The notes under the pieces were generated by a model. The model was not told the origin of the DNA and did no database searches. It was given only the letters and a program-made list of their open reading frames with translations. Below, one piece after another: positions 6,293-24,053 of a stretch of DNA of 24,053 nucleotides (within the stretch, counting starts at the first letter, position 1; each line of letters opens with the position of its first letter). Both the position numbers and the translations under genes were made by a program. Source of the stretch: Anaerolineae bacterium (GTDB lineage Bacteria; Chloroflexota; Anaerolineae; B4-G1); NCBI GenBank assembly GCA_030612585.1, contig JAUWNP010000053.1:1-24053 (forward strand), read 5' to 3'.

Positions 6293-6324
6293 GATGTTGG
6301 CGCGAGTTCAGATTCCAAGTCCAG

Positions 6325-6367
6325 AAAAAAAACCGTGAAATCCGTGTTTGCCCGTGTCCGATTTTCT
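6325..6367. repeat. Partial copy of the CACGGAT palindrome family
   Basis: Contains ACCGTGAAATCCGTG and CCCGTGTCCGATTT, which resemble the right arm of the element at 3730-3832 (CCGTGAGAATCCGT...ATCCGTGT...ATTT). The left arm is missing. The transketolase gene therefore lies between a full and a half copy. Confidence 0.6.
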
Positions 6368-6431
6368 GATAGTGTCCCCCTCGCTTGGGTGTTGTTGGTT
6401 TGATGGTGTCTGAATATGACATCGAATCTTG

Positions 6432-9600: not shown

Positions 9601-11060
9601 CCATCGACTCTACCGGCCTGGCTCCCGATACCTACTTTGGTAGCCTGGTCATCAGCAGCACCGCCCCGACCGACCCGCAGGTACTGGTGCCGCTGACGCT
9701 GACCGTGGAGAGTGGTACGCTGCAAGGCCGGGTCACCGAGATTGGCAGCGGTGTTCCGATCAGCGGGGCGTTGGCTACAGCCGATCCGGGCGGCTTTACG
9801 ACTCTCACAGACGTGAACGGCGACTATAACTACGACCCGCCGGCTTACGACGACTACACCGTGACCGTGGATGCCTTTGGGTATGAGAGCGGTGTGGCTA
9901 CCGGTGTCAACGTATCCCAAGGCGTAACCGTGACCCGGGACTTTCAGCTTATCCCCATCCCCCCTGCAATCGTAGACGGCACGGTGCGCGATGGTTCTGA
10001 ACACGGCTGGCCGCTCTACGCCCGCCTGGAGATGGAGGGGTTCCGGTTCGAAGACGTGCTCTTTACCAACCCAGCCAGCGGTTACTACTCTACCACCTTA
10101 CCGCAGGGCCTACCGTTCACCTTTACCGTGAAAGCGGAAAGCGATGGCTACATTGAGGTCACGCGCGTCATCACGCCGGGCGCTTCCGAGAACTTTGCGC
10201 TGGACATTGACTCGGTGGCGTGCACTGCGCCGGGGTACACGGTGACGGTGAACGCCCTCCTCCTCGGCGAGGACTTTGAGACCTGGCCGCTGAGCGGCTG
10301 GAGCATTGTAGATAACACCGATAGCGGCTGTGTCTGGTACGGCGATGACGACCTGGAGGGCGACTCTGAGGGCAACCTCACGGGCGTCTCTGGCAACTTT
10401 GCCGACGCCGACAGTGACAACTGCGGCCTGCAGGATATGGACACCGAGTTGATATCACCGCCCTTCGATGCTTCGCCCTATGAGGCGATCCTGGCTGAAT
10501 TCTCGTACAACCAGATGACACTTTTCGGCGACGATGCTGCCGACGTGGATCTCTTCGATGGCACTAACTGGAACACGATCTGGACGGCCCCTGACAACAC
10601 TGGCGGCAGGGTTAGGGCAGGAGGCTCAAGTTCCGCGGCCGATACCAGGGTTCGCTTCCACTACCACGATGCTTTCTGGTACTGGTGGTGGCAGGTGGAC
10701 GAGGTGCGCATCAGTGGCGCGACCTGCGTCCCGCTCGCGGGCGGCGGCCTGGTCGTTGGCAACGTCTACGACCGTGACACCGGCGACGGACTGAACGGGG
10801 CAAAGGTCACCAGCGTCCATCACGTGACCGACACCACAACCACGTGGGCCACGCCGGATGATGCGGCTGTGGACGATGGCTTTTACACCCTCTTCTCGTC
10901 GCTCACCGGCGATCACCCCTTTGAGGCCAGCGCACCTGGCTACATCACCAACGTGCAGACGCCTACCATCGTCGCCAGCGCCGTCGCTACCCAGGATTTT
11001 AGCCTGCTGCCCAGAAGGTGTGATATCTTCTTCCCACTGGTTTTCTCGTCGGTTCAGTAA
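6621..11060 (+). CDS. Secreted subtilisin-family (S8) serine protease with repeated C-terminal beta modules
   Basis: The protein has 1479 residues. GTG at 6621 is chosen over the TTG at 6588: GGGAGA lies 8 nt upstream, and the product then starts with a compact signal peptide (SKRTT, hydrophobic FLYLLIVGVALLSSM, cleavage near TRAA). Seen: an I9-like propeptide (about 65-165), then the S8 triad D199 (AVLDTGV), H263 (HGTHVGG) and S433 (GTSMSAPHVAG), with the oxyanion N370 (ASGNG). After about 490 come carboxypeptidase-regulatory-like beta domains, a MAM/choice-of-anchor-J-like domain (about 680-840), and a BACON-like domain (about 932-1032, TLTITNTGTLDLNW). The beta-module set is then repeated (about 1030-1470). 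The C-terminus reads CDIFFPLVFSSVQ. It is probably an extracellular or surface protease; the repeats may bind polymer or the cell surface. Confidence 0.88.
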   Translation: MSKRTTFLYLLIVGVALLSSMILPTRAATQTPGPGEPEPREKATSPVRPFVPAPAGLPPTGHPSQTEAEKLRAVAQNEGAVPLIVGVETDVPFVPEGRRAAPQSVQRQRQSINTAQETLLDSLSRFSITINARYKYIPYIALTVDAAGLEALLDSPLVTGVYEDSLDEPLLDSSVPIIGADDVWAAGYDGNGYAIAVLDTGVQWNHEFFGGVSSSRVITEACYSRGEDWYNPGAQGSLCAPEPHVADPDVPLCWAGASNICSHGTHVGGIAAGSHASATVAYDGVAPGADIIAIQVFSYFESEQDVLSWNSDQLLGLERVYDMSFTYNIAAVNMSLGGGRYTDYCDSDPRKAAIDNLLSVGIATVIASGNGYYTDGINAPACISSAVAVGATQDDDTVVPFSNSSEMVDLLAPGVGVNSSIPDNAYAEKNGTSMSAPHVAGAWALLKQAAPAATVGDTIAVLQDTGVPVTDARNGVTKPRIQVDAALPYMTGGFLSGTVKEDAAGYPPIAGAIVRASNPTYILQTTTDTSGAYHLRAPVGTYTVTAADYGYEPATVTGLSVSSGATTTRDLTLTAYTNYYTVSGVISDTNNGWPLYASIAVEGDPVSPPEGTLWNDPVTGYYSLTIVEGVTYTFNVNAWVAGYVPVTRTIGPLTMDITQDVALDVDAVACTAPGYTVTVNALLLDEDFETWPLSGWSIVDNTDSGCVWYGDDDLEDDSEGNLTGVSGNFADADSDNCGMQSMDTELISPSFDASPYEAILAEFSYNHMTILGSAASDVDIFDGTDWNTIWTAPADTGGRGRAIGARSGADTRVRFHYHDAYWEYWWQVDEVRISGATCVPLAGGGLVVGNVYDNNTGDELNGATVSNESGYSTTTGPTPDPTVDEGFYTLFSPQGSHVFTATRSGYVSDVQTPTVSLSSTVRQEFYLEAPAIEVTPSDLSAVLGGAATSEQTLTITNTGTLDLNWDISEAVPWASVSPVSGTVAPGPGAIVDVTIDSTGLAPDTYFGSLVISSTAPTDPQVLVPLTLTVESGTLQGRVTEIGSGVPISGALATADPGGFTTLTDVNGDYNYDPPAYDDYTVTVDAFGYESGVATGVNVSQGVTVTRDFQLIPIPPAIVDGTVRDGSEHGWPLYARLEMEGFRFEDVLFTNPASGYYSTTLPQGLPFTFTVKAESDGYIEVTRVITPGASENFALDIDSVACTAPGYTVTVNALLLGEDFETWPLSGWSIVDNTDSGCVWYGDDDLEGDSEGNLTGVSGNFADADSDNCGLQDMDTELISPPFDASPYEAILAEFSYNQMTLFGDDAADVDLFDGTNWNTIWTAPDNTGGRVRAGGSSSAADTRVRFHYHDAFWYWWWQVDEVRISGATCVPLAGGGLVVGNVYDRDTGDGLNGAKVTSVHHVTDTTTTWATPDDAAVDDGFYTLFSSLTGDHPFEASAPGYITNVQTPTIVASAVATQDFSLLPRRCDIFFPLVFSSVQ
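8604..9209 (+). repeat. Internal duplication copy A within the protease gene
   Basis: These 202 codons (residues about 662-863) align without gaps to copy B at a constant 1593-nt offset. I count about 28 amino-acid differences, unevenly spread: the first third is almost identical. Confidence 0.9.
10197..10802 (+). repeat. Internal duplication copy B within the protease gene
   Basis: Second copy of the choice-of-anchor-J-like segment and the start of the following beta domain (residues about 1193-1394). Weaker similarity continues on both sides (GWPLY domain before, GNVYD domain after), so a whole module of roughly 440 residues was duplicated. Confidence 0.9.
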
Positions 11061-11083
11061 TTCCCGTTATCCAACGTCTGTTC

Positions 11084-11739
11084 ATGCGGCGCATCGGGAT
11101 GTTTCGCAGTGAGCCGTTCATCCTGGTGGGAGACGTGATCCGCCGCGAGACGCAGACGTACGAGGCCGTGTTGAAGGCCATAGCGGCCGGCCGCCGGACG
11201 CCGCAGGAGATCGGTGCTATGCTGGGCCTGACGTCTTCCTACCTGCGCTTCTACTTCCGCTTCATCCAACCCAACCTGGGTTTGGTGGAGCAGGAGTTAA
11301 CCGATGTTCTCTGGCAACGCATCGCCGAACAATTCCGCGCCTTCGTGGGTCTGACCGCCTTTGAGGAATTGTGCCGCGAGTGGACGTTGGTCCAGGCCCG
11401 CGCCGGACGATTGCCTTTCCCGCCGGAGATCGTGGGCAGCCATTGGTCAAAGGACGTGCAGGTGGACGTGGTGGCGCTCAACTGGCGGGAGCAGGCCATC
11501 CTGTTGGGGGAATGCAAATGGGGGGGGTGAAGGCAGTAGGGCGCTCCGTGATCCGGGAGTTGGTGGGGAAGGCGCAGCGCGTCATCCCAGGGGAGGGCTG
11601 GCGGGTTCACTATGCCTTCTTCGCCCGCGCCGGGTTCACCGACGCTGCCTGCGCCGAGGCCAAGTCGCTGGGGGCGTCGTTGGTGGATTTGGAGATGCTG
11701 GACGCGGATTTGAGACGGGCGTTAGAATGGGATAGGTAG
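11084..11739 (+). pseudogene. Decayed C-terminal remnant of an archaeal-type ATPase (DUF234-like)
   Basis: Frame 1 (11084-11530) encodes MFRSEPFILVGD, a winged-helix-like stretch (YEAVLKAIAAGRRTPQEIG), RFYFRFIQPN and, near the stop, LLGECKWGG. The reading continues in the -1 frame from the G8 run at 11520-11527 with VGRSVIRELVGKAQ to 11739. Joined, the two parts match the C-terminal part and PD-(D/E)XK-like tail (ECKW) that I recall for archaeal-type ATPases with a DUF234 end, normally around 450-480 residues. Missing are the whole N-terminal P-loop domain and, apparently, about 40 residues between TSSYL and RFYFRF. It lies 23 nt after the protease stop with no clear ribosome-binding site. 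Most likely a non-functional fragment; a frameshifted functional fragment is less likely. Confidence 0.7.
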
Positions 11740-11746
11740 CGTGCTC

Positions 11747-11775
11747 TTGCCCTTCCCCGCCAATGCACATATAAT
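11747..11775 (+). promoter_or_regulatory. Promoter of the mre11-rad50-nurA-...-herA operon
   Basis: TTGCCC (11747-11752, four of six) and a perfect TATAAT (11770-11775) are separated by 17 bp. Transcription would start near 11782, giving a leader of nearly 240 nt before mre11. No comparable promoter was seen inside the operon, including ahead of the AT-rich insert. Confidence 0.65.
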
Positions 11776-11823
11776 TACCATGTCCCACGCTGACCGGAAC
11801 CGTCGTTCAATGACAGGAGTGTG

Positions 11824-12042
11824 ATGCCTAGAGGATACCTGACGCTGGAGAACCTCCGCCTGGCTCATGACTCTGGCTGTCTGTTGCCTCTCTTCCATGA
11901 ACTGGCCTGTCAGGTTGAAGCAGACCTGGTTTCCTTCGGCTCCGCTTACGCACTGGAGCAGTCTGTATGTGTTTGGTGTACTACATACCGACCCACAAAT
12001 AGTGACGGAGGTTGTAGTTATGCATTTCATGCACGTTGCTGA
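11824..12042 (+). CDS. Small leader ORF overlapping the mre11 start, hypothetical
   Basis: A 72-residue frame (MPRGYLTLENLRLAHDSG...) begins after AGGAG at 11815-11819, though the spacer is only 4 nt. It ends 23 nt inside mre11. I recognise no family. The region 11740-12019 has no other gene. It could be a translated leader peptide coupling to mre11, or chance open frame in GC-rich DNA; the opposite strand is also open here, which weakens the case for coding. Confidence 0.25.
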   Translation: MPRGYLTLENLRLAHDSGCLLPLFHELACQVEADLVSFGSAYALEQSVCVWCTTYRPTNSDGGCSYAFHARC

Positions 12043-13288
12043 CATCCACCTCGGCTACCAACAATACGGCTCCAAAGAGCGCTTCAACGACTTTAGCCAG
12101 GTCTTTCTGTACATCGTCGAACAGGCCATCGAGCAGCAGGTGGACTTTGTCCTGCTGGCCGGCGATCTCTTTGAGAAACGCACCGTAGATCCACTGGCTA
12201 TGCGCGTGGCCATCGAGGGGTTCAGACGGTTGCGCGAGGCCAGCATCCCCGTCGTCGCCATCGAAGGCAACCACGAAAAGGCCCACTATCGTGACCAGTA
12301 TTCGTGGGTGGACTTCCTGGATGGATTGGGCTATCTGTGTCTGCTCAACCCGCGCTTTGAGGACGGACGTGCCATCCTGGAGCCATACGGTGACACCGGA
12401 GGGGCCTATCTGGATCTGCCCGGTGGTGTCCGCGTTTATGGCCTCAAGTACTATGGCGCTTCCACTGGCAAGGTCTTTGGCCTCTTTGCCGACGCTTTGG
12501 CCGATATGGATCATGGCGACGTAGAATTCGCTATCTTGATGTCCCATGCCAGCCTGGAGGGGCAAGTGCCACGCTACTCCGGCACGCTTACCTACAATGA
12601 CCTGGTTCCGTTGCGGGAGCGCATCAACTATCTCGCTTTAGGACACATCCACAAGCCTTACACTATAGATGGGTGGATCTATAACCCCGGTTCGCCAGAG
12701 ACCTGGCGCAACGAAGAGGTCGCCTGGCCGGAGCGGGGCTACTACCTGGTCGAGGTTCATCCGGGATGCGACCCCGATCACCAGGCCAAGTTGATCACGA
12801 CCCCACGCCGTCCCTTCCATCGCTTTCGCCTGGAGGTAGACACTTTAACCGATCCCAACCTCGTCTACGACGCGGTGCGCGCATTGGTGAGGCGTGAGGA
12901 GAGCCGCGTTGCCCGAGATCCGGCTCCCGTCATCGAACTCACACTGGGCGGGGTGCTCCCCTTCAGTCGCTACGACCTCGACCTGGACTACATCAAAGGT
13001 TTGCTGGACGATGCCTGGTCGCCCCTCGTGACCCGGGTGCGAAACATGACCACTCCAGCCGAGTTCGAGATCGCCGTGGACGTCGAGGCCAGTCGCCCGG
13101 AACTGGAGCGCACCATCGTGCGCGAGTTACTGGAGCGAGATGCCCGCTTCCGACCGGCCGCTGACGACTGGACGCGCGTTGCCCTCGACGTGAAGCGGTT
13201 GGTCTTGGAAGACAGCCCCCCGGAGACCGTGATAGACTACCTGCGTCGCTCGCGAACCGAGTTAGTCAGAAACCGGGTTTTTTCTTGA
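12020..13288 (+). CDS. mre11: Mre11/SbcD-type DNA double-strand-break nuclease
   Basis: This 422-residue protein has the full calcineurin-like phosphoesterase metal site: D8 and H10 (ADIHLG), D49 (LLAGDLFEKR), N84/H85 (EGNHEK), H176 (MSHASLEG), and H209/H211 (GHIHKP). The family forms a heterotetramer with Rad50 that resects and cleaves DNA ends using Mn2+. ATG 12020 is chosen because GGAGG lies at 12007-12011 with an 8-nt spacer and the protein then starts MHFMHVADIH. The open frame reaches back to 11867 but that part is not family-like. The last residues (VRNRVFS) are encoded by a palindromic repeat, so the natural C-terminus has probably been altered. First main gene of the operon; rad50 follows after 30 nt. 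Confidence 0.92.
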   Translation: MHFMHVADIHLGYQQYGSKERFNDFSQVFLYIVEQAIEQQVDFVLLAGDLFEKRTVDPLAMRVAIEGFRRLREASIPVVAIEGNHEKAHYRDQYSWVDFLDGLGYLCLLNPRFEDGRAILEPYGDTGGAYLDLPGGVRVYGLKYYGASTGKVFGLFADALADMDHGDVEFAILMSHASLEGQVPRYSGTLTYNDLVPLRERINYLALGHIHKPYTIDGWIYNPGSPETWRNEEVAWPERGYYLVEVHPGCDPDHQAKLITTPRRPFHRFRLEVDTLTDPNLVYDAVRALVRREESRVARDPAPVIELTLGGVLPFSRYDLDLDYIKGLLDDAWSPLVTRVRNMTTPAEFEIAVDVEASRPELERTIVRELLERDARFRPAADDWTRVALDVKRLVLEDSPPETVIDYLRRSRTELVRNRVFS

Positions 13289-13301
13289 AAACCCGGTTTC
13301 T
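13268..13301. repeat. Perfect 14-bp palindromic repeat across the mre11 stop codon
   Basis: AGAAACCGGGTTTT (13268-13281) and AAAACCCGGTTTCT (13288-13301) are exact inverse complements around a 6-nt loop. The type closely resembles abundant GAAACCGGGTTTC palindromes I recall from Chloroflexi and cyanobacterial intergenic DNA. It encodes the mre11 tail, carries its stop, and ends just before the rad50 Shine-Dalgarno. Confidence 0.85.
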
Positions 13302-13318
13302 CAGGAGAGGCACGTAAG

Positions 13319-16045
13319 ATGCGGATTGCCCAGATAGACCTGGAAAACGTCAAGAGCTACCGGCGGGAGAGTGTGGTCTTTACCGAGGGTACCAATGCCA
13401 TCTGCGGGCCGAATGGCGCGGGTAAGAGCACACTGCTGGAGGCCATCGGTTTTGCGCTCTTTGACTCTGTGCCCTACATACGACGCAATTTCGTCCGCGA
13501 GGGAGAAAAGACAGCCACCGTCACCGTTCACCTGGTCAGCGACGATGAGCGAACCTACCAGGTGGTTCGCAAGTGCGGCAGCAGTAGCCGTTACTACGTC
13601 TACGATTCAGAGATTGACCAAAATCTCACAAGCGGTAAAGAAGAGACGCAGGCCTGGCTGTACGAGTTTATGGAGGTGGAGGAAACTACCAGTTTATCCG
13701 CCCTCTTCGAGGATGCGGTCGGCGTGCCCCAGGGCCTGCTGACAGCGGCTTTCCTGGACAAGGCAGGCAATCGCAAGAACACCTTCAACCCCCTTCTCCG
13801 CGTGGATGAGTACGAGAAAGTCTGGAAGGCACTGCTCGATCCACGAAGTCATCTCAAGAAGTGGATCGCCGAGCAAGAGAAGAGCATCGCCGGCTTCGAG
13901 GCTGAGGTCAAACCGCTGCCGGCCTTGCGGGAGAAAGTGGCCGGCCTGCAGGCTGAGATTGAGGTCGGTGAAAAGCGCCAGGCTGTCTTGCAGGTCGAAT
14001 TGCAAGACGTGACTCAGCGTAAGGAAGCCCTCGAGTCTATCAAGGAACGTCTGGATGCGCTGAAGCAAACGGTTACCCAAGCCGAGGCAGAGGTCAAGAC
14101 CCTCGGTGCGCGACTGGCCGATGCTCAGGCCGCCGTCGAACGGGCCGAGCAAGCTCAGACCGTAGTGTGCGAGACGGAGGTTGGGCACCAAGCCTATCTG
14201 GCAGCCCAGGCGAATCTGGCCGAGTTGGAGAAACGGCGGCGAGAGCGCGACCGTCTGAACGACACGCTCCAGCGACACGTCACCGATCTGGCCCTGGCCC
14301 AGCAGAAAGTCGTCGGGCTGGAATCGGATCTAAAGGCCATCGCCGTAGCCGAGGCCGAGATGGAGGCGCTGCGCCCACAGGTAGAATCCCAGGAACGGTT
14401 GGAGGGCGAACTTGCCGAGGCACGGCGCCTCGCCGACCGGCTGGCCGACGCGGAGCGAAATCTACATCAAGAGCAGATGCGACTGGCTGACCTGGAGACC
14501 AGGCTCTCAGGTATCCAGGCTGGCTTGGTCGAACTGGCCGAGGTCGAAGGGGAGATCGAAGCGCTACAAGCGGAACTGGAGGAACTGGACGGGCAACGCG
14601 ATGCGCTGACGGCTCAAATCGCTGCACACCAGGCGGAACTGGATCAACTGAAAGAGCAAACCGTCACTCTGGAAGCGGTTGAGACGGCGGTGTGCCCCGT
14701 GTGCGAAGGCGCGCTGACGCCGGAACATCGGTCCGAGTTGCTGGCGCGCAACCAGGTGCGTCAAGCAGAACTGGAGGCGGCGCTGGATGAAGCGATATCC
14801 CGGCAAGATACAGCAGAGAAAAGCCGGCACCAGAAACAGAGGGCGCTGCGCAATCTGGAAAAGCAGGTCAAAAAACTCCCTCGCCAGGCGGAGGCAGATG
14901 ATCTCGCGGCGCAGATAGACGCTCAACAGAAAGCCCTGTCAGGGGTCGAAGCGACGGTTGCCGAGCTAGCCGGCGCGCCCGCCGAGGTCGAACAGCTGAC
15001 GGCCGATCTTGAGGCACTGGGAGATCCTCGACGTGACTACCAGCGCGCTGCCGATACCGCCAGCCAACGGGAGGTCGTGGAGAAGGATTTGACGGCGACG
15101 AAGGAGCGCATCGCCGAGTTGAAGGGGTATAAGGACGCGCTCGAGGGGGAGTTGGCAAACTACGCCAACCTGGATGAGCAAATCGAGGCTGGGCGAGCGG
15201 CGCAGGCCGCTCACGAACCGGGTCACCAGCGCTACCTGGAGCACATCCGCGAGGCAGAAACGTTGGGAGAGCGCCAGGAAAGCGTCGCTGCCCTGAGCGA
15301 TGAACGGAAGGTTGCTCATGCTGAGTGGGAGCGCCTAGTCTGGGAGCGAGACCAGGTTGCAGCGGGCTATGATGCCAAAGCCTACGCGCAACTGCTGGAG
15401 GCGTTTACCGCGTTGAGCAGTGAGATGGCGACTTTGAGCGAGCGGATTCGTATGCAGCGCGATCAGGTAAACGAAGGACAGGCTGAGATAGAGCGGCTGG
15501 TGCACGTGCAGGAGGCCCTCGAGACAGTCCGCATCGAGCACGCCGAATTGGTCGAGGTGTTGGCCCTCCTGGACTACCTGCGCCAGGTGTTGCGGGACGC
15601 GGGACCGAAGGTGACCCAGGCATTGGTCGAGGTCATCTCGCTGCAGGCGGCTCGTCTCTATGCCGACATTATGGCCGACCACACTGCCCGGCTGCGCTGG
15701 ACGGAGGACTACGAGATCGTCCTGATGGCAGGCGGTCGGGAGCGCACCTTCAAGCAACTTTCTGGCGGTGAGCAGATGGCAGCCGCTCTTGCCGTGCGCC
15801 TGGCACTATTGCGCGAGGTCTCGGCAGTTGACGTCGCCTTCTTCGACGAGCCGACGGCCAACCTGGACGACCACCGGCGTGACAACCTGGCCGAGCAGAT
15901 CCTGAACGTCAAGGGCTTCTCCCAGCTCTTTGTCATCAGCCACGACGACACCTTTGAGCGGAACACCGACAACGTGGTGCGGGTGGTCAAAGAGAACGGC
16001 GTCAGCCGGGCCGGCCCTGAGTCCGTCGAACGGGTGGAGGTTTGA
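13319..16045 (+). CDS. rad50: Rad50/SbcC-type SMC ATPase
   Basis: The 908-residue protein is typical in size for Rad50. Seen: Walker A GPNGAGKS at 30-37 (K36), two long coiled-coil arms rich in Glu/Gln/Leu/Arg (about 180-780), a zinc hook CPVC at 459-462 exactly mid-protein, ABC signature LSGGEQ at 814-819, Walker B with D843-E844 (FFDEPTANLDD), and H875 in the switch loop (VISHDD). It binds Mre11 at the base of the coils, tethers DNA ends through the hook, and gates nuclease access by ATP. AGGAGAGG (13303-13310) with an 8-nt spacer supports the ATG. The stop TGA overlaps the nurA ATG by one base (TGATG), so translation is probably coupled. Confidence 0.93.
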   Translation: MRIAQIDLENVKSYRRESVVFTEGTNAICGPNGAGKSTLLEAIGFALFDSVPYIRRNFVREGEKTATVTVHLVSDDERTYQVVRKCGSSSRYYVYDSEIDQNLTSGKEETQAWLYEFMEVEETTSLSALFEDAVGVPQGLLTAAFLDKAGNRKNTFNPLLRVDEYEKVWKALLDPRSHLKKWIAEQEKSIAGFEAEVKPLPALREKVAGLQAEIEVGEKRQAVLQVELQDVTQRKEALESIKERLDALKQTVTQAEAEVKTLGARLADAQAAVERAEQAQTVVCETEVGHQAYLAAQANLAELEKRRRERDRLNDTLQRHVTDLALAQQKVVGLESDLKAIAVAEAEMEALRPQVESQERLEGELAEARRLADRLADAERNLHQEQMRLADLETRLSGIQAGLVELAEVEGEIEALQAELEELDGQRDALTAQIAAHQAELDQLKEQTVTLEAVETAVCPVCEGALTPEHRSELLARNQVRQAELEAALDEAISRQDTAEKSRHQKQRALRNLEKQVKKLPRQAEADDLAAQIDAQQKALSGVEATVAELAGAPAEVEQLTADLEALGDPRRDYQRAADTASQREVVEKDLTATKERIAELKGYKDALEGELANYANLDEQIEAGRAAQAAHEPGHQRYLEHIREAETLGERQESVAALSDERKVAHAEWERLVWERDQVAAGYDAKAYAQLLEAFTALSSEMATLSERIRMQRDQVNEGQAEIERLVHVQEALETVRIEHAELVEVLALLDYLRQVLRDAGPKVTQALVEVISLQAARLYADIMADHTARLRWTEDYEIVLMAGGRERTFKQLSGGEQMAAALAVRLALLREVSAVDVAFFDEPTANLDDHRRDNLAEQILNVKGFSQLFVISHDDTFERNTDNVVRVVKENGVSRAGPESVERVEV

Positions 16046-17235
16046 TGTTTCACCGAGAACGAGTGATCGCCGCACTGGAGGCCCAAGATGATCGCTTCGC
16101 TGGCTATGAGACAGAGCTGAGCGACACCATCGCGGGCTATGAGCAGGCATTGATAGAGCTGGTCGGTCTCAATCGGGCCGAGATTGAGGCTCGACTGGCT
16201 GGTGTCCCCTGGCCCGGTGCCCGGCCCACCGTCGAGCACGATCAACATCCTGGCATTGTCGTGCCCTTCAGCCAGACCTGGGCCAATCACGAGCAGGCAC
16301 GGGCCTGGGCGCGGGATGTGCTGACCGGTGTACCGACCGTCGCCGTGGATGGCTCACAGATCACGCCCAGCAAGGACATCTCGGTGCCGGTGGGCGCAGT
16401 GCAGATCGGCTGGTTCGTCAATCCTCACGACGGCGACCAGGGTTACGTCAAAGACATCACCTTTGAGGTTCTGGCCCCCGACGAGTTGGCCGACGAAGGC
16501 GAAGAGGATGTCTCTGCCTTTGGTTTCCCCGACTGGCGCGTCAACGCACGGCGCTTCATCCTGGAATGTGAGAAACTGGTGGAGAGTATGCAGGCCGCCT
16601 GCGATGACGAGGTCAAGCCGGTCTGCTTCTTCGATGGCTCGCTGGTCATCTCTTTCGTCCAGCACATGCTACCGGAGCGCCAAAAGCAATACATCAAGGC
16701 AGTGATGTCGCTGCTGGCGGCGTCCGAAGAGTGTCGCGTGCCGTTGGTTGGCTACGTGGATACGAGCTATGCCAACGACCTGGCAGCGATGCTAGATGCG
16801 CTGGCCGGCCGGCGCACGCGCCAGCGCATCAGCGATGGCGCGCTGCTACGCCCCAGGATGCAATGGGGCGACCGCACGGTGGCCTACGTCTGCGCCCGCG
16901 ACGACAAGGTGCTGCCGGTCGGTGGTGGCAAGTACTACGACCGCGTCTGTTTCGTTTACCTGAAGACGACGGCCGACCGCCCACCATCTCGGTTGGACCT
17001 GCCCTGCTGGCTGCTGGAGGCCGGCGAGTTAGAGCACACATTGGACGTGGTGCGGGCAGAGTGCGTTGTGGGCAATGGCTATCCCTACGCGCTGGAGACC
17101 GCCGACGCGGTAGCGGTGATCACGATGCAGGACCGAGAGCGGTTTTATCGGGCGTTTCAGGAGTTTGCGGAGAAGAGGAGTTTGCCGTTTCGCTTCAGCC
17201 GGAAGATGATCAGCAAAGATAGACGGAGACAGTAG
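16045..17235 (+). CDS. nurA: NurA 5'-3' nuclease
   Basis: This 396-residue protein belongs to the NurA family, the nuclease that works with the HerA hexameric translocase to degrade the 5' strand at DNA ends. Seen: the RNase-H-like active-site segment AVDGSQITPSKD with D102, a second acidic strand FFDGSLVISF with D197, GYVDTSYANDLA with D239, and the conserved C-terminal GNGYPYALETADAVAVI. ATG 16045 overlaps the rad50 stop; GGAGG sits at 16036-16040. A TTG one codon earlier is possible but less likely. Strongly GC-rich, like rad50 and herA, in contrast to the next two genes. In canonical clusters herA follows directly; here two foreign-looking genes intervene. Confidence 0.9.
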   Translation: MFHRERVIAALEAQDDRFAGYETELSDTIAGYEQALIELVGLNRAEIEARLAGVPWPGARPTVEHDQHPGIVVPFSQTWANHEQARAWARDVLTGVPTVAVDGSQITPSKDISVPVGAVQIGWFVNPHDGDQGYVKDITFEVLAPDELADEGEEDVSAFGFPDWRVNARRFILECEKLVESMQAACDDEVKPVCFFDGSLVISFVQHMLPERQKQYIKAVMSLLAASEECRVPLVGYVDTSYANDLAAMLDALAGRRTRQRISDGALLRPRMQWGDRTVAYVCARDDKVLPVGGGKYYDRVCFVYLKTTADRPPSRLDLPCWLLEAGELEHTLDVVRAECVVGNGYPYALETADAVAVITMQDRERFYRAFQEFAEKRSLPFRFSRKMISKDRRRQ

Positions 17236-17239
17236 AATT

Positions 17240-18130
17240 ATGGACCAGTTTCCTTCCCTTGATCGATGGTTTGATATACACGTTAACGTACCGAATTCGC
17301 ACGGATACACAAGATATGACTTGATTGTCAAAAACGACTTGGAGGTTCAGGAATGGGATGAGTTCTTAGATGAACTTGCTCTTGTTATTGCACGCTTAAG
17401 ATTGCATCGGAATTGGTATAAGCAATGGCTCGAATACTGGAAAAACTCGATACCTATTCCCCCCGAGTGGAAAGAGAAGTTTAGAGATCAATTCTGGCGC
17501 GGATTTGTGAGTAGTAAAGCGACCAAAGAAGAAATGGGGAGCATACAATTTGATGAAACTGCGCTTCAGGGCTATGTAGGTGAACTAATCTTGTACCTTG
17601 TGCAATCGCAGTTTTACGATCAGAGAATTGATGCTGTTCCACGAAAGCCTAAACAACATTCCAAAGATAGTGGCATCGATTGTCTCGAGTTGTGTGGAGA
17701 TCAAGATGATTACGATTCACTTCATTATATTGCTTGGGAATGCAAAGGAACAACCGATAGTACCCCGGATAATTTCCCCGGCAAGATTTACAGAGGACAT
17801 TTAGAAGAAACTTCCAAGTCTTTTGGGGAGATGATCGGTTTGCTTTTCGATTTACATAGCAATGATGATGTGCTAAAAAGATTTATCGATGAAATGATCG
17901 ATGATTTTTATTCTCCTACGCCGTCACTTAGAAAGAGATTTGGAGGATGCGTTACATACAGTGCCAGTTGCATTATGCACTCTGGTGCGTTTTCAAGGTT
18001 TGCCTCTAGGTTTAGGGGGAAATTGGCAGAAGATGCAATGTGTCGCCAGATCCGACTTTGTGCAGTGGGTGATTTTGCGAAAATCATCGAACAGGTGCGG
18101 GATAGAATATGGATCAAATTGCTTCCGTAG
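17240..18130 (+). CDS. PD-(D/E)XK nuclease resembling HamA (DUF1837) of Hachiman antiphage systems
   Basis: The protein has 296 residues. Seen: a helix with YVGELILYLV (E115), then SGIDCLEL (D147) and, 20 residues later, IAWECKG (E167, K169). E...GID...ExK is a PD-(D/E)XK nuclease core. The GELI...GID...EcK layout and overall length match what I recall of HamA/DUF1837 effector nucleases, which pair with an SF2 helicase (HamB) encoded next door, exactly the arrangement here. The first 100 residues are not recognised. GGAG at 17225-17228 lies 11 nt before the ATG, inside the end of nurA; the gene begins 4 nt after nurA and overlaps the helicase gene by 22 nt. The sequence is AT-rich (24 of 60 G+C in 17281-17340, against 43 of 60 in 16861-16920), suggesting transfer. 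Other nuclease families remain possible. Confidence 0.65.
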   Translation: MDQFPSLDRWFDIHVNVPNSHGYTRYDLIVKNDLEVQEWDEFLDELALVIARLRLHRNWYKQWLEYWKNSIPIPPEWKEKFRDQFWRGFVSSKATKEEMGSIQFDETALQGYVGELILYLVQSQFYDQRIDAVPRKPKQHSKDSGIDCLELCGDQDDYDSLHYIAWECKGTTDSTPDNFPGKIYRGHLEETSKSFGEMIGLLFDLHSNDDVLKRFIDEMIDDFYSPTPSLRKRFGGCVTYSASCIMHSGAFSRFASRFRGKLAEDAMCRQIRLCAVGDFAKIIEQVRDRIWIKLLP

Positions 18131-21100
18131 AAAAACTAAAGAAATGTCTCGACGCAATCAAAATCAGTGATACCTACACTGATTTGCAGAACTTGATCAC
18201 CGAGTTGCATTTCGCCTACGAGTCTTACCGATTCAAGAGAGATGTACCTGGTCTTTCGGATCAGCGAACACTATGGGACACCGCATACTATCTGCTCACG
18301 GCCTTGACTAATCCTCGGAGACGATCAAGGATGCCGAGTTCTGATGTGCAAGATGGGTTAGCCATTTCAGGGCTTGTATTTGAGTTACTGGGGCGTTACG
18401 CGGAAGCACGTGCAGACCTTGCTCTTCAAAGAGATTGTTTTCTCAACGCAGCAATTGTCAACACGTTATCACGGTATGAGGCCAATTCGGCGGTTCTGGC
18501 AAGGTCGTATTTCAAAGATGATTTGCTGCCTGAGAACAAACAGGACTTCTTATCCAGACCTGCCGAGTATGGAATGAATATGACTCTTGCACTGCTGGCA
18601 CGTGAATTCTTCTGGATTCATCATCATGAGCCCATATTCTCGAAACTTCTTGATCCACCTGAGAAAGTCAATAGAGAACTGGATGATATTGACAGGCAAT
18701 ATGGTGAGGAAACAGGTTTTTGGGTATTGGTCTGCAGAGCGGTTATCCAATTCGTTGGTTTCATGATAAGTGGTGAAGAGCGAGCCTATCGTGCAGCGTT
18801 GACAACCCTAAGCAATGGTCGTCAAATCGCCCGCGACTATGAACTCCTCTCAGAACACTGGCTGGCGTCCAGGCTGCTCGATTGTCTCGAACGGATGGAA
18901 GAACGTTCAACCTGGCGCGTATTACGAGCCCATGGATTCTCCGAAGACTACATCTCAACATTGACGAGATTCCCTTGGAACGCAGTTCATGAGCTTTGGC
19001 AATCGCAGATCGACGCCTTGACCAGGGTAGAGACTCCGGATCAGCCTGAACGGAGTAGCATTTTGTCAGATGACGTAAATCGAGTTGTTGTCAGCATGCC
19101 CACTAGCGCAGGCAAAACCCTGCTGGCAGAAATGGTGATTGTCCAAACACTCCAGCACAAACCAGGATCGAAATGTGTGTACGTTGCACCTACCAGAGCA
19201 CTCGTGGACGAAATAGAGACAAAACTTCACCGTCGCCTTCGGTTTCTTGGCTACCGTGTCACGAGCGTTGTTGGAGCTTTTGAAATCAGTACCATTGAAC
19301 AGGATTACCTTGAAACAGTTGATGTAGCTGTATTGACCCCAGAGAAACTGGATTACCTGTTCAGAAAACGTGATCCATTTGCTGATCAAGTTGAGCTAAT
19401 CATCTTTGACGAAATACACAAGGTGGGCGAAGGTAACCGTGGTTGGTTTCTCGAAACTCTTGTTACTTGGCTTCTCTTGAAACCGAACCTGAAGGATGCC
19501 AAAATGGTCTTTATGACCGCAGTGCTACCGCGCTCACAGCAACCTCTTGTAAGACTGTGGCTTGGACAAGAGAGTATTGCTCCAATTGTTGTGAGCAACT
19601 GGTCTCCGACCCGACAATTGATCGGTGTACTGTGGTATCCTCAACTGACACCTGATTGGGATCATCCAGTTGATTTGGATAGCCAAGGAAATCGTTGTTA
19701 TTGGGGAACTTGCGCTGATTTGACTTTCAGATACGACATCGGAACAGAACACAGAACCTTGGAGGGACTGTACAGACTGCGTTTCTGGGTGAATGATGAT
19801 TTCAAGAGAGTTCGTCGTGACGAAGAAACTAGATATGATCGCTGTTTGAAACTGATTGCACTTCTTGGTTCAGAGAACTCAACACTCGTCTACTTTCAAG
19901 AGAAGAAGGACCTGGTTCGGTTCTGCAAACATGCTCAAAAGGAACTTGACCGTCTCAAGGATCCCAATCTTGACAGACTCGTGCAATATGTTTCTGCGAG
20001 ACTTGGCCCCGATTTCCCAATAGTAAGAAGTTTGCCTTACGGAGTTGCCTTTCATCATGGGGATTTACCCGTTGATGTGCGGAACGAGATCGAGAGCGCG
20101 TACCGTGACAAGGTCATCCGTGTCTTGGCATGTACCACGACTCTAGCAGAAGGTGTCAACCTTCCAATTCAGACCTTCATTCTAGGCTACCATCAGACTT
20201 GGAGCAAGCACCGACTCTCTGTCAGTGACTTTAAGAACATCATAGGCCGAGCTGGTCGCGCTCTTATTGAGACTGAGGGGAAAATCATCGCAATTCGCCA
20301 TCCTGAATTCGCAAGAGATGATGATGATGCAAAGTACTTCGAGTCTCTGGTAAGTCTGGATGAGAGTGAGTTAGTAATCAAGAGTGAATTCCCACCACGC
20401 AGACTCCAGGATGAGAGGGAGCGTGTCGTTGATGAACTCAGTGCGCTAACTCAAACCATTAAAGATGCTCAGGCATTGGCTCAGGTGGAATATGTAGAGG
20501 AGTTGGCAGATGTACTGCAACGACTGCAGGTGTTTATTTTCACCATTTACGAAGACAGGATAATCGATCATACACCTGAGTTGGTTGACAATGCGTTGAA
20601 AAGCACGTTCCTCTTTATTCAAAACCCTGATCCGGAAATTCGGCAAGCGGTTAGCAGACTGAGCCAAAGGTTTGCGACGATTTGCAGTCAAATGGATTCG
20701 ACCAAGTTGAGAAGGTTCAACACATCGGGCCTACGTTACAAGTCCAACATTTTGCTAGAACAACTTGCCGAACGAATCGCGAAGAGGTGCGCGGGATTGA
20801 AGGCCAAGCAATATACCTTTAAAAAAGTAATTTCTCGCGAAGATATTCAGTTCATACTCGACAATATTCGTGAAGCAAGACCTCAACGTTCTGAGTATCG
20901 CAAAAATCAGTACAGGGTGGTAGAGGGACTTGATCATTATAGTGTCTTGATTGATTGGCTTAATGGCGGGAGCTTTTCAAGTATTAGGGATACTTACTTT
21001 GGGGAGCTTGATAGCATAGCAGTCAGAACGGAAACCTGTCAAAGCTATATCTCCAAGCAGTTTACTTTCAAACTGCCTTGGGCTTTAGCAGCTCTGCACA

Positions 21101-21783
21101 CGCATGCTGAGAGGTTGGGCAATCCAACTCTGATCCTGTGGTTGGAAGCTGCTCCAGCGCAGGTGAAATACGGAGTTGATACCCCTGAGGCAGTATATTT
21201 CTCCTCGGTAGGCGTGCAGTCGAGATTTCTAGCCAGAGCCTTGGGTGAATTATATCGTGAAGAGCGGGGGGCAATGTCCGCATCGGATTGGCAGCCATTG
21301 GGGGACTGGTTCCTTGGCTTGAGTCCATTCTATCTGCGGGATAAGATATCCCACTTGCCAGAATTGGCAATAAGGCAAGCCATCCGACGTGCTAACGTAA
21401 TCCGCCGCCCGAGTAGAACGCTTCGGAGAACTGGACGAGTCATATTCAACATTGCAGGGTGGCAATACTATAGTGGTGAGAAGCTCATTGATGAGCTTTT
21501 TGAGAGATCTTGGGGAGAAGAAAAGCCACTTGCACAACTGCAACACGAACTGGACAATGAGTACGACGAGTATGCAGTAGCCATACACTGGGGACAACCA
21601 ACACCGGACAGCAAGCTGGGATACGTTCCTCGAAGATATAATGAGGAAATCGCTATTTTGCTTGCGCTGGGAAGAAGACTTGAGGCCAGAGTTATAGCTG
21701 TAGGTTCTTCCCTTCAGCCGAGCGGCTGGCGGCGAGTCGAAGTGCGAGTGGAGCTTATTACAGATCGGAGAATAGAATGGTGA
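18109..21783 (+). CDS. Ski2-like SF2 DNA/RNA helicase with C-terminal HIRAN domain (HamB-like)
   Basis: The protein has 1224 residues. Residues 1-320 are largely helical and unrecognised, perhaps TPR-like. Helicase motifs: I, PTSAGKT with K336; II, DEIH at 434-437; III, MTAVLP; IV, TLVYFQEKKD; V, CTTTLAEGVNLP; VI, NIIGRAGRA with R714 and R717. Motifs V-VI are Ski2/Hel308-like. About 350 residues of helical DNA-binding or ratchet-type sequence follow. From about 1108 to 1215 there is a HIRAN-like domain: IAGWQYYSG (from 1115), the conserved LQHELDNEYDEYAVAIHW and KLGYVPRRYNEEIAILL. HIRAN domains in HLTF bind DNA 3' ends. With the overlapping nuclease gene this fits a HamAB-type pair in which the helicase senses DNA and licenses the nuclease. 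AT-rich throughout (20 of 60 G+C in 20821-20880). It ends overlapping the next gene by 7 nt. Confidence 0.8.
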   Translation: MDQIASVEKLKKCLDAIKISDTYTDLQNLITELHFAYESYRFKRDVPGLSDQRTLWDTAYYLLTALTNPRRRSRMPSSDVQDGLAISGLVFELLGRYAEARADLALQRDCFLNAAIVNTLSRYEANSAVLARSYFKDDLLPENKQDFLSRPAEYGMNMTLALLAREFFWIHHHEPIFSKLLDPPEKVNRELDDIDRQYGEETGFWVLVCRAVIQFVGFMISGEERAYRAALTTLSNGRQIARDYELLSEHWLASRLLDCLERMEERSTWRVLRAHGFSEDYISTLTRFPWNAVHELWQSQIDALTRVETPDQPERSSILSDDVNRVVVSMPTSAGKTLLAEMVIVQTLQHKPGSKCVYVAPTRALVDEIETKLHRRLRFLGYRVTSVVGAFEISTIEQDYLETVDVAVLTPEKLDYLFRKRDPFADQVELIIFDEIHKVGEGNRGWFLETLVTWLLLKPNLKDAKMVFMTAVLPRSQQPLVRLWLGQESIAPIVVSNWSPTRQLIGVLWYPQLTPDWDHPVDLDSQGNRCYWGTCADLTFRYDIGTEHRTLEGLYRLRFWVNDDFKRVRRDEETRYDRCLKLIALLGSENSTLVYFQEKKDLVRFCKHAQKELDRLKDPNLDRLVQYVSARLGPDFPIVRSLPYGVAFHHGDLPVDVRNEIESAYRDKVIRVLACTTTLAEGVNLPIQTFILGYHQTWSKHRLSVSDFKNIIGRAGRALIETEGKIIAIRHPEFARDDDDAKYFESLVSLDESELVIKSEFPPRRLQDERERVVDELSALTQTIKDAQALAQVEYVEELADVLQRLQVFIFTIYEDRIIDHTPELVDNALKSTFLFIQNPDPEIRQAVSRLSQRFATICSQMDSTKLRRFNTSGLRYKSNILLEQLAERIAKRCAGLKAKQYTFKKVISREDIQFILDNIREARPQRSEYRKNQYRVVEGLDHYSVLIDWLNGGSFSSIRDTYFGELDSIAVRTETCQSYISKQFTFKLPWALAALHTHAERLGNPTLILWLEAAPAQVKYGVDTPEAVYFSSVGVQSRFLARALGELYREERGAMSASDWQPLGDWFLGLSPFYLRDKISHLPELAIRQAIRRANVIRRPSRTLRRTGRVIFNIAGWQYYSGEKLIDELFERSWGEEKPLAQLQHELDNEYDEYAVAIHWGQPTPDSKLGYVPRRYNEEIAILLALGRRLEARVIAVGSSLQPSGWRRVEVRVELITDRRIEW

Positions 21784-22385
21784 TAGGTAAAGTTGTCAAG
21801 TCCAGCTTCCATATTGACTATGTCTGTCAGGTCTACGGCCCTGGTGAGGTTGAATCGCCCCCATCTCCCGCCGACTACGCCTTCGGCACCTTCGTCCGCA
21901 TCCCATTGAGCGAGGGCAACGGTCACCTGGTCGGCGTGATCTACGACACCGTCCTGCTTAACCCCGAGTTCGGCAGCCTCGGTCCGCGTCTCTCCCCCGC
22001 GCCCGACCTGGCCGTCTTCTCGCCCGACTATCTGGCCGAAAAGGTCACGCTGGTTGGCATCACCGCCGTGGGCACACTGGGGGCGGATGGTAGCGTCACC
22101 CACGGCGTGCCATCTTTGGCCGCCCAGATTGACGCGCTGGTTGAGCGAATGGACAACGATGTGATTCGCACGTTCCATCATCCAGCCAGCCGCAACCCGG
22201 CTGGTGTCCATCTGGGCTATGCGCCGCTGCTTCTGGCCTTGGGCAGCCCTCTGGCCCGTCACCTGTTGCTGCGCGTCGTTGACCGGCTGATCGCCCTCTT
22301 TCCTGGCCATGTGGCCCATCTCTCCGTGCTGCGCGGCGAACTGGCCTGGCAGGCGGTCATCGGGCCAGTAGGAGGTGCGTCGTGA
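21777..22385 (+). CDS. HAS-barrel-like protein preceding HerA
   Basis: The protein has 202 residues and starts at ATG 21777, or at the adjacent GTG 21780. The N-terminal half (MVIGKVVKSSFHIDYVCQV..., AFGTFVRIPL..., HLVGVIYDTVLLNPEFGSLG) has the short-strand pattern of a HAS barrel, the beta-barrel found at the N-terminus of HerA-type ATPases. The second half is helical (LAAQIDALVERMDNDVIRTFH, LLLRVVDRLIALF) with no catalytic motif visible. It overlaps the helicase gene by 7 nt and the herA start by 4 nt (GTGA). GC-rich sequence resumes within its first 60 bases. It is probably an accessory subunit for HerA or NurA docking; it may be the older partner that directly followed nurA before the AT-rich pair arrived. 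Confidence 0.65.
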   Translation: MVIGKVVKSSFHIDYVCQVYGPGEVESPPSPADYAFGTFVRIPLSEGNGHLVGVIYDTVLLNPEFGSLGPRLSPAPDLAVFSPDYLAEKVTLVGITAVGTLGADGSVTHGVPSLAAQIDALVERMDNDVIRTFHHPASRNPAGVHLGYAPLLLALGSPLARHLLLRVVDRLIALFPGHVAHLSVLRGELAWQAVIGPVGGAS

Positions 22386-24053
22386 GCCCAGTCATCCCCA
22401 TCGGCACGACCAAAGGTCCTGGTGAAACAGTCCACGAGTACATCTTCATCACGCCGGACCGCGAACGGACCGCCAAGGTCGGCGAGTTCGTCTACTATGA
22501 AACATCAGTGGTTGGCCAATCCCGCCGCGTGCTGGGGCGTATCACCGGGCGGCGTCCAGTGCGCTTGTTTCCCGATGGCTTTCTGGCTGATCCCAATGTC
22601 CCCCCAGCCGAGGTCGCGGCGATGATCGGCTACACCGGACAGGATCACGAATTGTTTGAGGTCGGCGTCGTGGTCTTGGGCTATTACGATGAAGCGTTGG
22701 GCGACTTTATCAATCCCCGGCTGCCACCCCGCGCCGGCGTGCCCATCTACGTGGCCGAGGACGATATGCTGGCCCGTGTCCTCAGCAAGCGAGCCATGGG
22801 CGAGATCGGGGCTGCACATGTTGGCTCGCTCCTCAGCCGTCCGGTCGGTGAGGTGCCTATTGCCATTGACCTGCGGGCGGTTACCAGCACCCACTTGGCG
22901 ATCATCGCCAGCACTGGATCCGGCAAAAGCTACCTGGCTGGCGTGCTCATCGAAGAGTTGATGTCCCCTCGCAACCGGGCAGCCGTGCTCATCGTGGATC
23001 CCCACGCTGAGTACGACACGCTGACTCAGATGCAGGGATTGGATGCCTTTGCCAGTGATGCAGGTTATCGGCCACAGGTCGAGATCATCCATCCCGAAGA
23101 CGTCAAGGTGCGCATTTCATCCCTGACACTGGGCGACTTACGCTACCTGCTGCCCGAGATGTCAGAGCGGATGCACTATGTCCTGGGCCGGGCTTATAGG
23201 CTGGTTGGGCGTAAGTACGGTGAAAAGTGGACGCTGGCGCAGCTTCGGCTGGCGGTACGCGAAGCCGAGAGGCAAATGAACCGCAAAGCTGGACAGAGCG
23301 TCGAAGAACAAATGGAGGAACTGTCTCAGGACGATGATTTTGTCTCCGCCGGTGCGGTGATCTGGCGGATCAACTCGCGTCTGGAAAACTCTGCCATTTT
23401 CAACGATTTCCAGAGTTTGCCTCTCGACCGACTCTTTCGGCCAGGGCAGTGTACCGTGTTGCAGCTCAACGAGGTAGATCATCGAGAGCAGCAGGTCGTC
23501 GTGGCCACGTTGCTGCGACGGCTGCTCTACGCGCGCACGCAGACGGAGAAACGGCTGGCCGTCGAGGGCGACGAGACGTATTTGCCCTACCCGACGTTTG
23601 TGCTCATTGAGGAGGCGCACAATTTCGCACCAGCCGCGGCCGACCTGGTGAGCTCGCAGGTCCTCAAGACCATCCTGTCCGAAGGGCGCAAGTTCGGCGT
23701 GGCCGTGGGGCTCATCAGCCAGCGCCCTGGCAAGCTGGACGCCGACGTGCTCTCCCAGTGCATGACTCAGTTCATTCTGCGCATCGTCAACCCGGTGGAT
23801 CAGGCCCGCGTGGCGGAGAGTGTCGAGAGCGTGGGGCGCGATCTGTTGAAGGAATTGCCAGCGTTGTCCAAAGGCCAGGCCATCATCGCCGGTGCAGCGG
23901 TCAACACGCCGATGCTGTGCCGGGTACGTCGCCGCATCACCGATCACGGTGCCGAGGACATGGACGCTCCGGCGTGCTGGCTGGAATGGTTTGCGGATGA
24001 TCGGGCAAGCCAGCGCGAACGTGATTTGGCGCTACCTTCCGAGCCAGAGACGC
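22382..24053 (+). CDS. herA: HerA-type FtsK-like DNA translocase, 3' truncated by window
   Basis: The frame opens at GTG 22382, overlapping the preceding TGA by four bases, and stays open to the window edge (557 codons). Seen: an N-terminal HAS barrel (about 1-140), Walker A ASTGSGKSYL with K182, Walker B FVLIEEAH with E410/E411, then the HerA-specific run GLISQRPGKLDADVLSQC followed by TQFILRIVNPVDQ. HerA forms a hexameric ring that pumps duplex DNA into NurA, in concert with Mre11-Rad50, during end resection. The canonical wording of these motifs makes this the housekeeping-type HerA rather than the variants fused to or paired with SIR2 or DUF4297 defence effectors. The C-terminus is not seen. 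Confidence 0.92.
   Translation, partial: MSPVIPIGTTKGPGETVHEYIFITPDRERTAKVGEFVYYETSVVGQSRRVLGRITGRRPVRLFPDGFLADPNVPPAEVAAMIGYTGQDHELFEVGVVVLGYYDEALGDFINPRLPPRAGVPIYVAEDDMLARVLSKRAMGEIGAAHVGSLLSRPVGEVPIAIDLRAVTSTHLAIIASTGSGKSYLAGVLIEELMSPRNRAAVLIVDPHAEYDTLTQMQGLDAFASDAGYRPQVEIIHPEDVKVRISSLTLGDLRYLLPEMSERMHYVLGRAYRLVGRKYGEKWTLAQLRLAVREAERQMNRKAGQSVEEQMEELSQDDDFVSAGAVIWRINSRLENSAIFNDFQSLPLDRLFRPGQCTVLQLNEVDHREQQVVVATLLRRLLYARTQTEKRLAVEGDETYLPYPTFVLIEEAHNFAPAAADLVSSQVLKTILSEGRKFGVAVGLISQRPGKLDADVLSQCMTQFILRIVNPVDQARVAESVESVGRDLLKELPALSKGQAIIAGAAVNTPMLCRVRRRITDHGAEDMDAPACWLEWFADDRASQRERDLALPSEPET

What the first reader, a model, noticed from the sequence alone, without database searches (positions are those of the whole stretch)
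17240..21783. Hachiman-like nuclease-helicase pair embedded inside a Mre11-Rad50-NurA-HerA operon
Seen: a PD-(D/E)XK nuclease (E115, D147, E167-x-K169) overlapping by 22 nt an SF2 helicase (PTSAGKT, DEIH, GRAGR), lying between nurA and the HAS-barrel/herA genes and sharing their operon. Known: HamA (DUF1837 nuclease) and HamB (SF2 helicase) form the Hachiman antiphage system. Inferred: a defence module has been wired into the host end-resection machinery, so that DNA-end processing and a genome-integrity-sensing nuclease are made together. I do not recall this combination being described.
Basis: partly seen in the sequence, partly recalled or inferred. Interest (0 to 1): 0.88.

Follow-up and report, generated by a model that had tools for sequence, protein, structure and literature searches.

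The report
Hachiman defence inside a DNA-repair operon
A borrowed two-gene anti-virus system that is expected to sense broken DNA and then destroy all DNA sits exactly between two genes of the cell's own DNA-break repair operon, at a spot where a relative carries a different borrowed defence-type gene.

Summary

New here: the nurA|202-aa-gene junction may be an insertion slot. A same-order genome carries a low-GC GmrSD-type gene there. A second contig (31,436 bp, not read) probably links HamA, HamB and NurA again.

Most likely it works as ordinary Hachiman: HamB senses free 3' DNA ends and unleashes HamA, here made together with enzymes that produce such ends. Functional coupling is inferred, not shown. 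I found no such arrangement in the papers searched.

The parts
11699..11775 (+). two promoter-like matches (11699-11728, 9 of 12; 11747-11775, 10 of 12), candidate promoter of the operon
   Evidence: consensus scan of 11000-24053, 8 such sites on both strands against 5.6 (sd 2.2) expected: weak
11867..13288 (+). mre11-like phosphoesterase
   Evidence: PF00149 4.7e-16; NF041029 1.1e-29, below its curated cut-off
13319..16045 (+). rad50
   Evidence: SMC_N 1e-25, Rad50 zinc hook 5.3e-6; NF003034 3.8e-75, below its curated cut-off
16042..17235 (+). nurA nuclease
   Evidence: PF09376 7.8e-33; 2936 relatives at E <= 0.001 among 7997 scored
17236..17239 (+). left junction: 4 nt between the nurA stop and the hamA ATG
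   Evidence: sequence
17240..18130 (+). hamA, PD-(D/E)XK effector nuclease; GC 0.42, GC3 0.41
17582..17746 (+). stretch with the active-site codons E115, D147, E167-x-K169
   Evidence: invariant in 22 of 22 aligned rows
18109..21783 (+). hamB, Ski2/Hel308-type SF2 sensor helicase; GC 0.47, GC3 0.46
18181..18891 (+). N-terminal helical region of HamB, counterpart of the HamA-binding NAH domain (extent approximate, inferred)
   Evidence: aligned in range with E. coli HamB; 45 of the 47 other rows shown begin at model residue 237-251
21433..21729 (+). C-terminal HIRAN domain of HamB (residues 1109-1207)
   Evidence: PF08797 2e-7
   Evidence: no family match; follows nurA on the same strand in 41 of 80 named loci
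22382..24052 (+). herA, running off the window
   Evidence: PF01935 1.9e-36; NF040819 1.5e-58, below its curated cut-off

Best explanation
A horizontally acquired Hachiman (HamAB) system has inserted precisely between nurA and the next gene of a conserved mre11-rad50-nurA-HAS-herA operon, probably of an Anaerolineae (Chloroflexota) bacterium (host inferred from NurA relatives), and is expressed from the operon's transcript (inferred from spacing). [quoted passage not shown] coli; inferred here from conserved parts). The position is best explained by a permissive site at the nurA|HAS junction that takes cargo without breaking the operon. A consequence, not shown to be an adaptation, is that sensor and effector are made together with the NurA-HerA machine that produces 3' tails.
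For: Identity; active site. Foreignness: GC; GC3 0.41/0.46 against 0.71-0.83 and Karlin codon distance 0.70/0.59 against 0.15-0.48 for the 11 other genes. Empty junctions: tblastn finds HamA or HamB in 0 of 80 fetched nurA stretches; in the seven closest, L001-L007, nurA and HAS are about 13-99 nt apart. The HamA profile matches 0 of 48 genomes of their order and 1 of 396 of the class. Site: same-order genome G360 has a GmrSD_N gene of GC 0.43 (PF03235 2e-31; PADLOC HEC-05 2.1e-30) in the same junction. Mobility: the one class relative of HamAB lies beside ORFs that look by eye like conjugation ATPases, a primase and a transposase (not searched). Against a chimera: both flanks belong to one operon in the conserved order, and contig length 31436 is shared by a HamA, a HamB and a NurA cluster. 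Mechanism: Tuck et al. 2024 PMC12278908; 3'-tail production by bacterial NurA-HerA, PMC9960219 abstract.
Against: HamA sequence profiles are weak: no Pfam match at E 0.1 for the window protein, PADLOC HamA E 0.033. Of 22 family members, one reaches PF08878 at 0.097; two reach PADLOC HamA PDLC00171 (best 0.033) and one PDLC00158 (0.0021), and one matches PglX at 0.0013. hhalign against five PF08878-positive HamAs of the class: P 0.26. PF08878 labels listed for three relatives were not reproduced by direct scans. No expression, phage or transcript data. GmrSD is a single clear low-GC parallel. Equivalence of E167/K169 to E. coli E138/K140 is by motif, not by a residue-level structural map. Some fetched nurA stretches end shortly after nurA, so '0 of 80' is weaker than 80 complete operons.
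Confidence: 0.8

Rival explanations
1. Functional fusion of pathways: HamAB is placed under the repair operon by selection, so that the suicide nuclease is made only where the resection machine is present, and NurA-HerA action or coating of 3' ends keeps HamB from firing until repair fails (a repair-first, die-later switch).
For: 3' ends activate HamB and NurA-HerA makes 3' tails; very tight coupling on both sides, with the HAS ATG and a GGAG inside the hamB end; a probable second embedded HamAB on the 31436-bp contig with NurA 81%, HamA 59% and HamB 70% identical to the window.
Against: The same junction carries unrelated cargo elsewhere: GmrSD_N, Uma2, DNA-alkylation and radical-SAM genes. 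A HamAB relative exists outside this operon. Two long HamAB contigs (59611, 39300 bp) match no listed NurA contig length, although only the best 120 of 2936 NurAs were listed.
Confidence: 0.25
2. The pair is not antiviral but a repair helicase-nuclease recruited as a further subunit of the resection complex.
For: HamB is of the Ski2/Hel308 kind, with Hel308 repair helicases among the next best folds; position in the operon.
Against: Foreign composition; no match in 80 of 80 fetched stretches of relatives; whole-length match in range to E. coli HamB including the N-terminal region outside the Hel308 alignments; HamA fold; a mobile-element-like setting of one relative, judged by eye.
Confidence: 0.08
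3. Assembly artefact joining a foreign contig into the operon.
For: No whole genome is held for the window, which is probably a metagenome record; no reads could be examined.
Against: Both sides continue the same conserved operon in order; genes overlap at the right junction; the 31436 coincidence, with about 0.0025 HamA-NurA matches expected by chance for contigs over 20 kb.
Confidence: 0.03

Closest known systems
Hachiman HamAB of E. coli ECOR31 (PDB 8VX9, 8VXA, 8VXC, 8VXY)
   Same: Two genes hamA-hamB; PD-(D/E)XK HamA fold; Ski2-type HamB over its whole length, in range, including the N-terminal helical region and the C-terminal barrel region (paper)
   Different: HamA 9% identical in the structural alignment and missed by Pfam; the HamB C-terminus is recognisable as HIRAN; the genes lie inside a double-strand-break repair operon
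AbpAB (PDB 8ZUE, whose chain B is named Anti-bacteriophage protein B), proposed by Tuck et al. as a Hachiman variant
   Different: AbpA has an extra N-terminal nuclease and an inactive HamA site; here the HamA motif is intact and the protein has no such extra domain
HamMAB, protease-HamA Hachiman (PMC12799240, passages read)
   Same: Hachiman core with new partners
   Different: There HamA is fused to a protease and in virtually all cases has lost its motif; here HamA is unfused with the motif intact, and the new element is the operon around it
Mre11-Rad50-NurA-HerA end-resection operon
   Same: Gene order and families conserved
   Different: No HamA or HamB in the relatives' stretches read
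PADLOC PDC-M23B candidate defence helicase
   Same: HamB scores 255 bits to it
   Different: Scores higher to HamB1 (280 bits); not pursued

Membership tests
Hachiman (HamAB) | hamA and hamB adjacent, as a nuclease-helicase pair | tested here: met
   Overlapping genes in the window; 9 of 23 HamA clusters share a contig length with one of 34 HamB clusters (the 34 best of 120 listed), about 0.02 expected
Hachiman (HamAB) | HamA/DUF1837 (PF08878) by sequence profile | tested here: inconclusive
   Window protein: no Pfam match at 0.1, PADLOC HamA 0.033. Of 22 members: 1 at PF08878 0.097; PADLOC HamA in 2 (best 0.033) and 1 (0.0021). hhalign P 0.26
Hachiman (HamAB) | HamA fold | tested here: met
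Hachiman (HamAB) | D-E(X)K active-site motif | tested here: met
   E115, D147, E167-x-K169 invariant in 22 aligned sequences; GxxGE, GxD, ExK line up with a PF08878-positive HamA from the same class, where the more distant G356 HamA has Q in place of the first E
Hachiman (HamAB) | HamB: SF2 Ski2-like helicase with intact motifs | tested here: met
   PADLOC HamB1 1.1e-83; best PDB sequence match is HamB; PT-AGK, DE and R-GR residues invariant in 38 aligned rows
Hachiman (HamAB) | N-terminal NAH domain that binds HamA | tested here: met
   Model residues 1-1196 align in range with E. coli HamB 19-1165, while 45 of 47 other rows shown start at 237-251; ranges only, no residue map; HamA binding itself not tested
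Hachiman (HamAB) | phage defence and DNA-damage-triggered DNA degradation | not testable with these tools
   needs experiment
HIRAN domain (PF08797) | profile match over the curated cut-off | tested here: met
   2e-7, 31.1 bits against 24.7; also in the class relative, 1.3e-12
Chromosomal repair operon component | present in relatives' operons with host-like composition | tested here: not met
   No HamA/HamB in 80 of 80 named stretches or 41 of 41 further stretches, three of which are probably repeats; GC3 0.41/0.46 against 0.71-0.83

The most novel reading that the evidence does not exclude
The nurA|HAS junction is an operon-internal defence slot: genome-integrity-sensing defence genes are repeatedly loaded into the end-resection operon, so that a sensor of unprocessed 3' DNA ends and a DNA-destroying effector are made in proportion to the repair machine that makes and consumes those ends. 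The cell then runs a repair-or-die switch in which resection capacity sets the trigger threshold of Hachiman.
Probability: 0.25. Interest if true: 0.85.

Novelty: new variant of a known kind. Interest (0 to 1): 0.62.

Why it matters
Tuck et al. [quoted passage not shown] Here both sit in one gene cluster, so the question can be tested by co-expression and deletion. If the junction is a real slot, defence genes can be found by looking inside repair operons and not only in defence islands. The HamA here is nearly invisible to PF08878 and PADLOC models, so relatives of this branch are probably missed by current defence annotation.

Tried and rejected
HamA profile against solved chains by sequence: no significant match (best E 0.23, a portal protein). 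HamA pattern scans of genome contigs and viral contigs: 45 and 17 stretches matched a pattern, none confirmed. HamA profile in the 20 genomes behind L001-L020: 0 of 20; phylum sample: 1 of 400, the same genome G356 as in the class sample; order of G010: 0 of 25. tRNA near the site: ARAGORN finds none in the window.

Imperfect direct repeat at the two junctions (CGGAGACAGTAGAAT against CGGAGAATAGAAT): score 11.5, reached by 40 of 5000 random ATG pairs and 85 of 4987 RBS-like pairs; but the hamB start scores 10.5 against both junctions, and the HAS start of the empty locus L001 scores 11.5 against the left one. I treat it as shared ribosome-binding sequence, not as an insertion scar.

HIRAN as a novelty: rejected as a headline. 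It is listed for the 22 best-scoring HamB clusters, window included, and E. coli HamB has a C-terminal OB-like barrel that falls in the aligned range. That the two are the same domain is inference; by sequence the stretch finds only an uncharacterised protein, 3k2y_A, E 5.6e-4. HIRAN in other defence proteins: 10 papers listed, not read.

HamB on plasmids: 192 of 72,556 records match, all under 60% identity, one covering 80% of the query. Suggestive of recombination; not pursued. Inserts with host-like GC: Uma2 at L030 (0.67 against 0.68) and L012 (0.65 against 0.63) do not show recent import.

Not a result: 12 of the 71 NurA places were neither fetched nor among the named loci.

Full report
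What is there. Junctions are tight: 4 nt between nurA and hamA, 22-nt overlap hamA/hamB, 7-nt overlap hamB/HAS, 4-nt overlap HAS/herA. Promoter-like matches on this strand lie before mre11 (11699-11775) and inside hamB, none between nurA and hamA; such matches are only slightly above chance (8 on both strands against 5.6, sd 2.2).

Foreign origin. In 1000-bp windows GC falls from about 0.6 to 0.44-0.47 over this stretch. GC3 is 0.41 (hamA) and 0.46 (hamB) against 0.71-0.83 in the 11 other genes; codon distance is 0.70 and 0.59 against 0.15-0.48, where the highest of the others are the two shortest genes.

Empty junctions. A NurA alignment found 80 named loci (best 80 of 95 kept), the closest from Chloroflexota, mostly Anaerolineae; the window's host is inferred from this. 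HamA and HamB are in 0 of 80 stretches (tblastn E 1e-5); some stretches end shortly after nurA. In 41 of 80, HAS follows nurA on the same strand: 26 have 6-119 nt between them and 15 have 393-1939 nt. The seven closest (L001-L007, NurA 64-72% identical) have about 13-99 nt. The HamA profile matches 0 of 48 genomes of their order, 1 of 396 of the class and 1 of 400 of the phylum; both hits are genome G356, which shows that the profile can ring. PF08878 finds HamA in 5 of 298 class genomes. G356 carries hamA-hamB, with HIRAN, beside ORFs that I read by eye, without a search, as conjugation ATPases, a primase-like protein and a transposase: a mobile-element-like setting, not a repair operon.

The junction as a site for cargo. 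In the order of L004, 16 of 48 genomes match the NurA profile, 8 of them closely (E 2.4e-30 or better). Seven have nurA and HAS adjacent. The eighth, G360, has a 596-aa GmrSD_N gene (PF03235 2e-31; PADLOC HEC-05 2.1e-30) between nurA (78% identical over the 55 residues present) and HAS. Its GC is 0.43 and GC3 0.45; the flanks have 0.61. HAS there breaks off after about 45 residues at a sequence with a DDE_5 transposase match. Other cargo at the same junction: Uma2 in L030 (8.6e-29; PADLOC PDC-S03 8.3e-16); DNA_alkylation and radical-SAM/HHH ORFs in L012; DUF1801 in L058 and a DUF4287 match just under its cut-off in L044. Nine Acidobacteriota loci have a 574-821 nt gap; the ORF of the one scanned (L080) has only a sub-cut-off zinc-ribbon match. 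A further class survey gave 71 places in 69 of 396 genomes. I fetched 41 of them: HAS follows in 22, of which 21 have a 3-103 nt gap and one (G360) has cargo; in 19 no HAS was found in the stretch fetched; HamA/HamB in 0 of 41. Inserts are thus uncommon in the class, and the other junctions of the operon were not counted, so 'slot' is a hypothesis with one strong low-GC parallel.

A second case. Contig length 31436 is shared by HamA P0005, HamB P0148 and NurA P0045 (81% identical to the window's), all from the same two sources; expected chance matches for contigs over 20 kb are about 0.0025 (HamA-NurA) and 0.0055 (HamB-NurA). Length 5348 is shared by HamA P0007 and NurA P0031, but short lengths coincide more easily (about 0.15 expected over all lengths). 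Gene order on these contigs is unknown. HamA contigs of 59611 and 39300 bp match none of the 120 NurAs listed (of 2936).

How it most likely works. Known for E. coli (part 1 of the results and the discussion read): HamAB is a 1:1 complex; HamB prefers 3' overhangs; a free single-stranded end inserted in HamB induces ATP hydrolysis and activates HamA, which degrades host and phage DNA; DNA-damaging agents also activate it without phage (abstract). Known for Deinococcus: NurA-HerA resects the 5' tail and makes a 3' tail (abstract). Inferred: in this bacterium the same transcript makes both. Either the resected ends are coated and used too quickly to trigger HamB, or the embedded position sets the trigger. 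Nothing here decides between them.

Novelty. In the held library no paper contains 'Hachiman' with NurA, with Mre11, or with HerA, NurA and Rad50 together. 'Hachiman' with 'HIRAN' gives 12 papers, 11 listed; the one among these on defence systems holds 'Hirano', not HIRAN. The Tuck paper's main text does not hold HIRAN, HerA, Mre11, resection or operon. Of 28 papers with 'Hachiman' and 'HamB' (20 listed) I read sections of one and passages of two. A search on repair-operon and hotspot terms gave one E. coli defence-island paper (listing and start of abstract only). Most subscription papers, and bioRxiv, are not in that library, so absence from it is not absence from print.

Noticed in passing
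L106 (G360), 4635-6425 minus strand: A low-GC GmrSD_N gene (PADLOC HEC-05) sits in the same nurA|HAS junction; HAS then breaks off at a sequence with a DDE_5 transposase match.
   Followed up: yes
window 21777-22385: Conserved 202-aa gene of NurA-HerA operons (36-73% identical in the 41 loci where it follows nurA, Chloroflexota and Acidobacteriota among them) without a Pfam, NCBIfam, PADLOC or PHROG match: an unnamed companion of HerA.
   Followed up: partly
window 11084-11530: A 148-aa ORF with only a DUF234 domain (PF03008 1.1e-21); it may be the tail of a longer ATPase gene (recalled, not tested).
   Followed up: no
L030 10154-10825: Uma2 (putative restriction endonuclease) between nurA and HAS in a Chloroflexota genome, with host-like GC.
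   Followed up: partly
L012 2230-4169: DNA_alkylation and radical-SAM/HHH ORFs between nurA and HAS.
   Followed up: partly
L100 7056-11285 (Nostoc plasmid NZ_CP117771.1): A single CDS of 4230 nt annotated HamA that covers a HamB match: apparently a HamA-HamB fusion, on a plasmid typed as conjugative.
   Followed up: no
L010, L021, L025 and 19 of 41 stretches: NurA without a detectable HAS or HerA in the stretch fetched: a different arrangement in part of the class, or short stretches.
   Followed up: no
P0001/P0147 against the window: HamA 95% but HamB 75% identical on what is probably one contig (length 5949); suggests recombination within hamB.
   Followed up: partly
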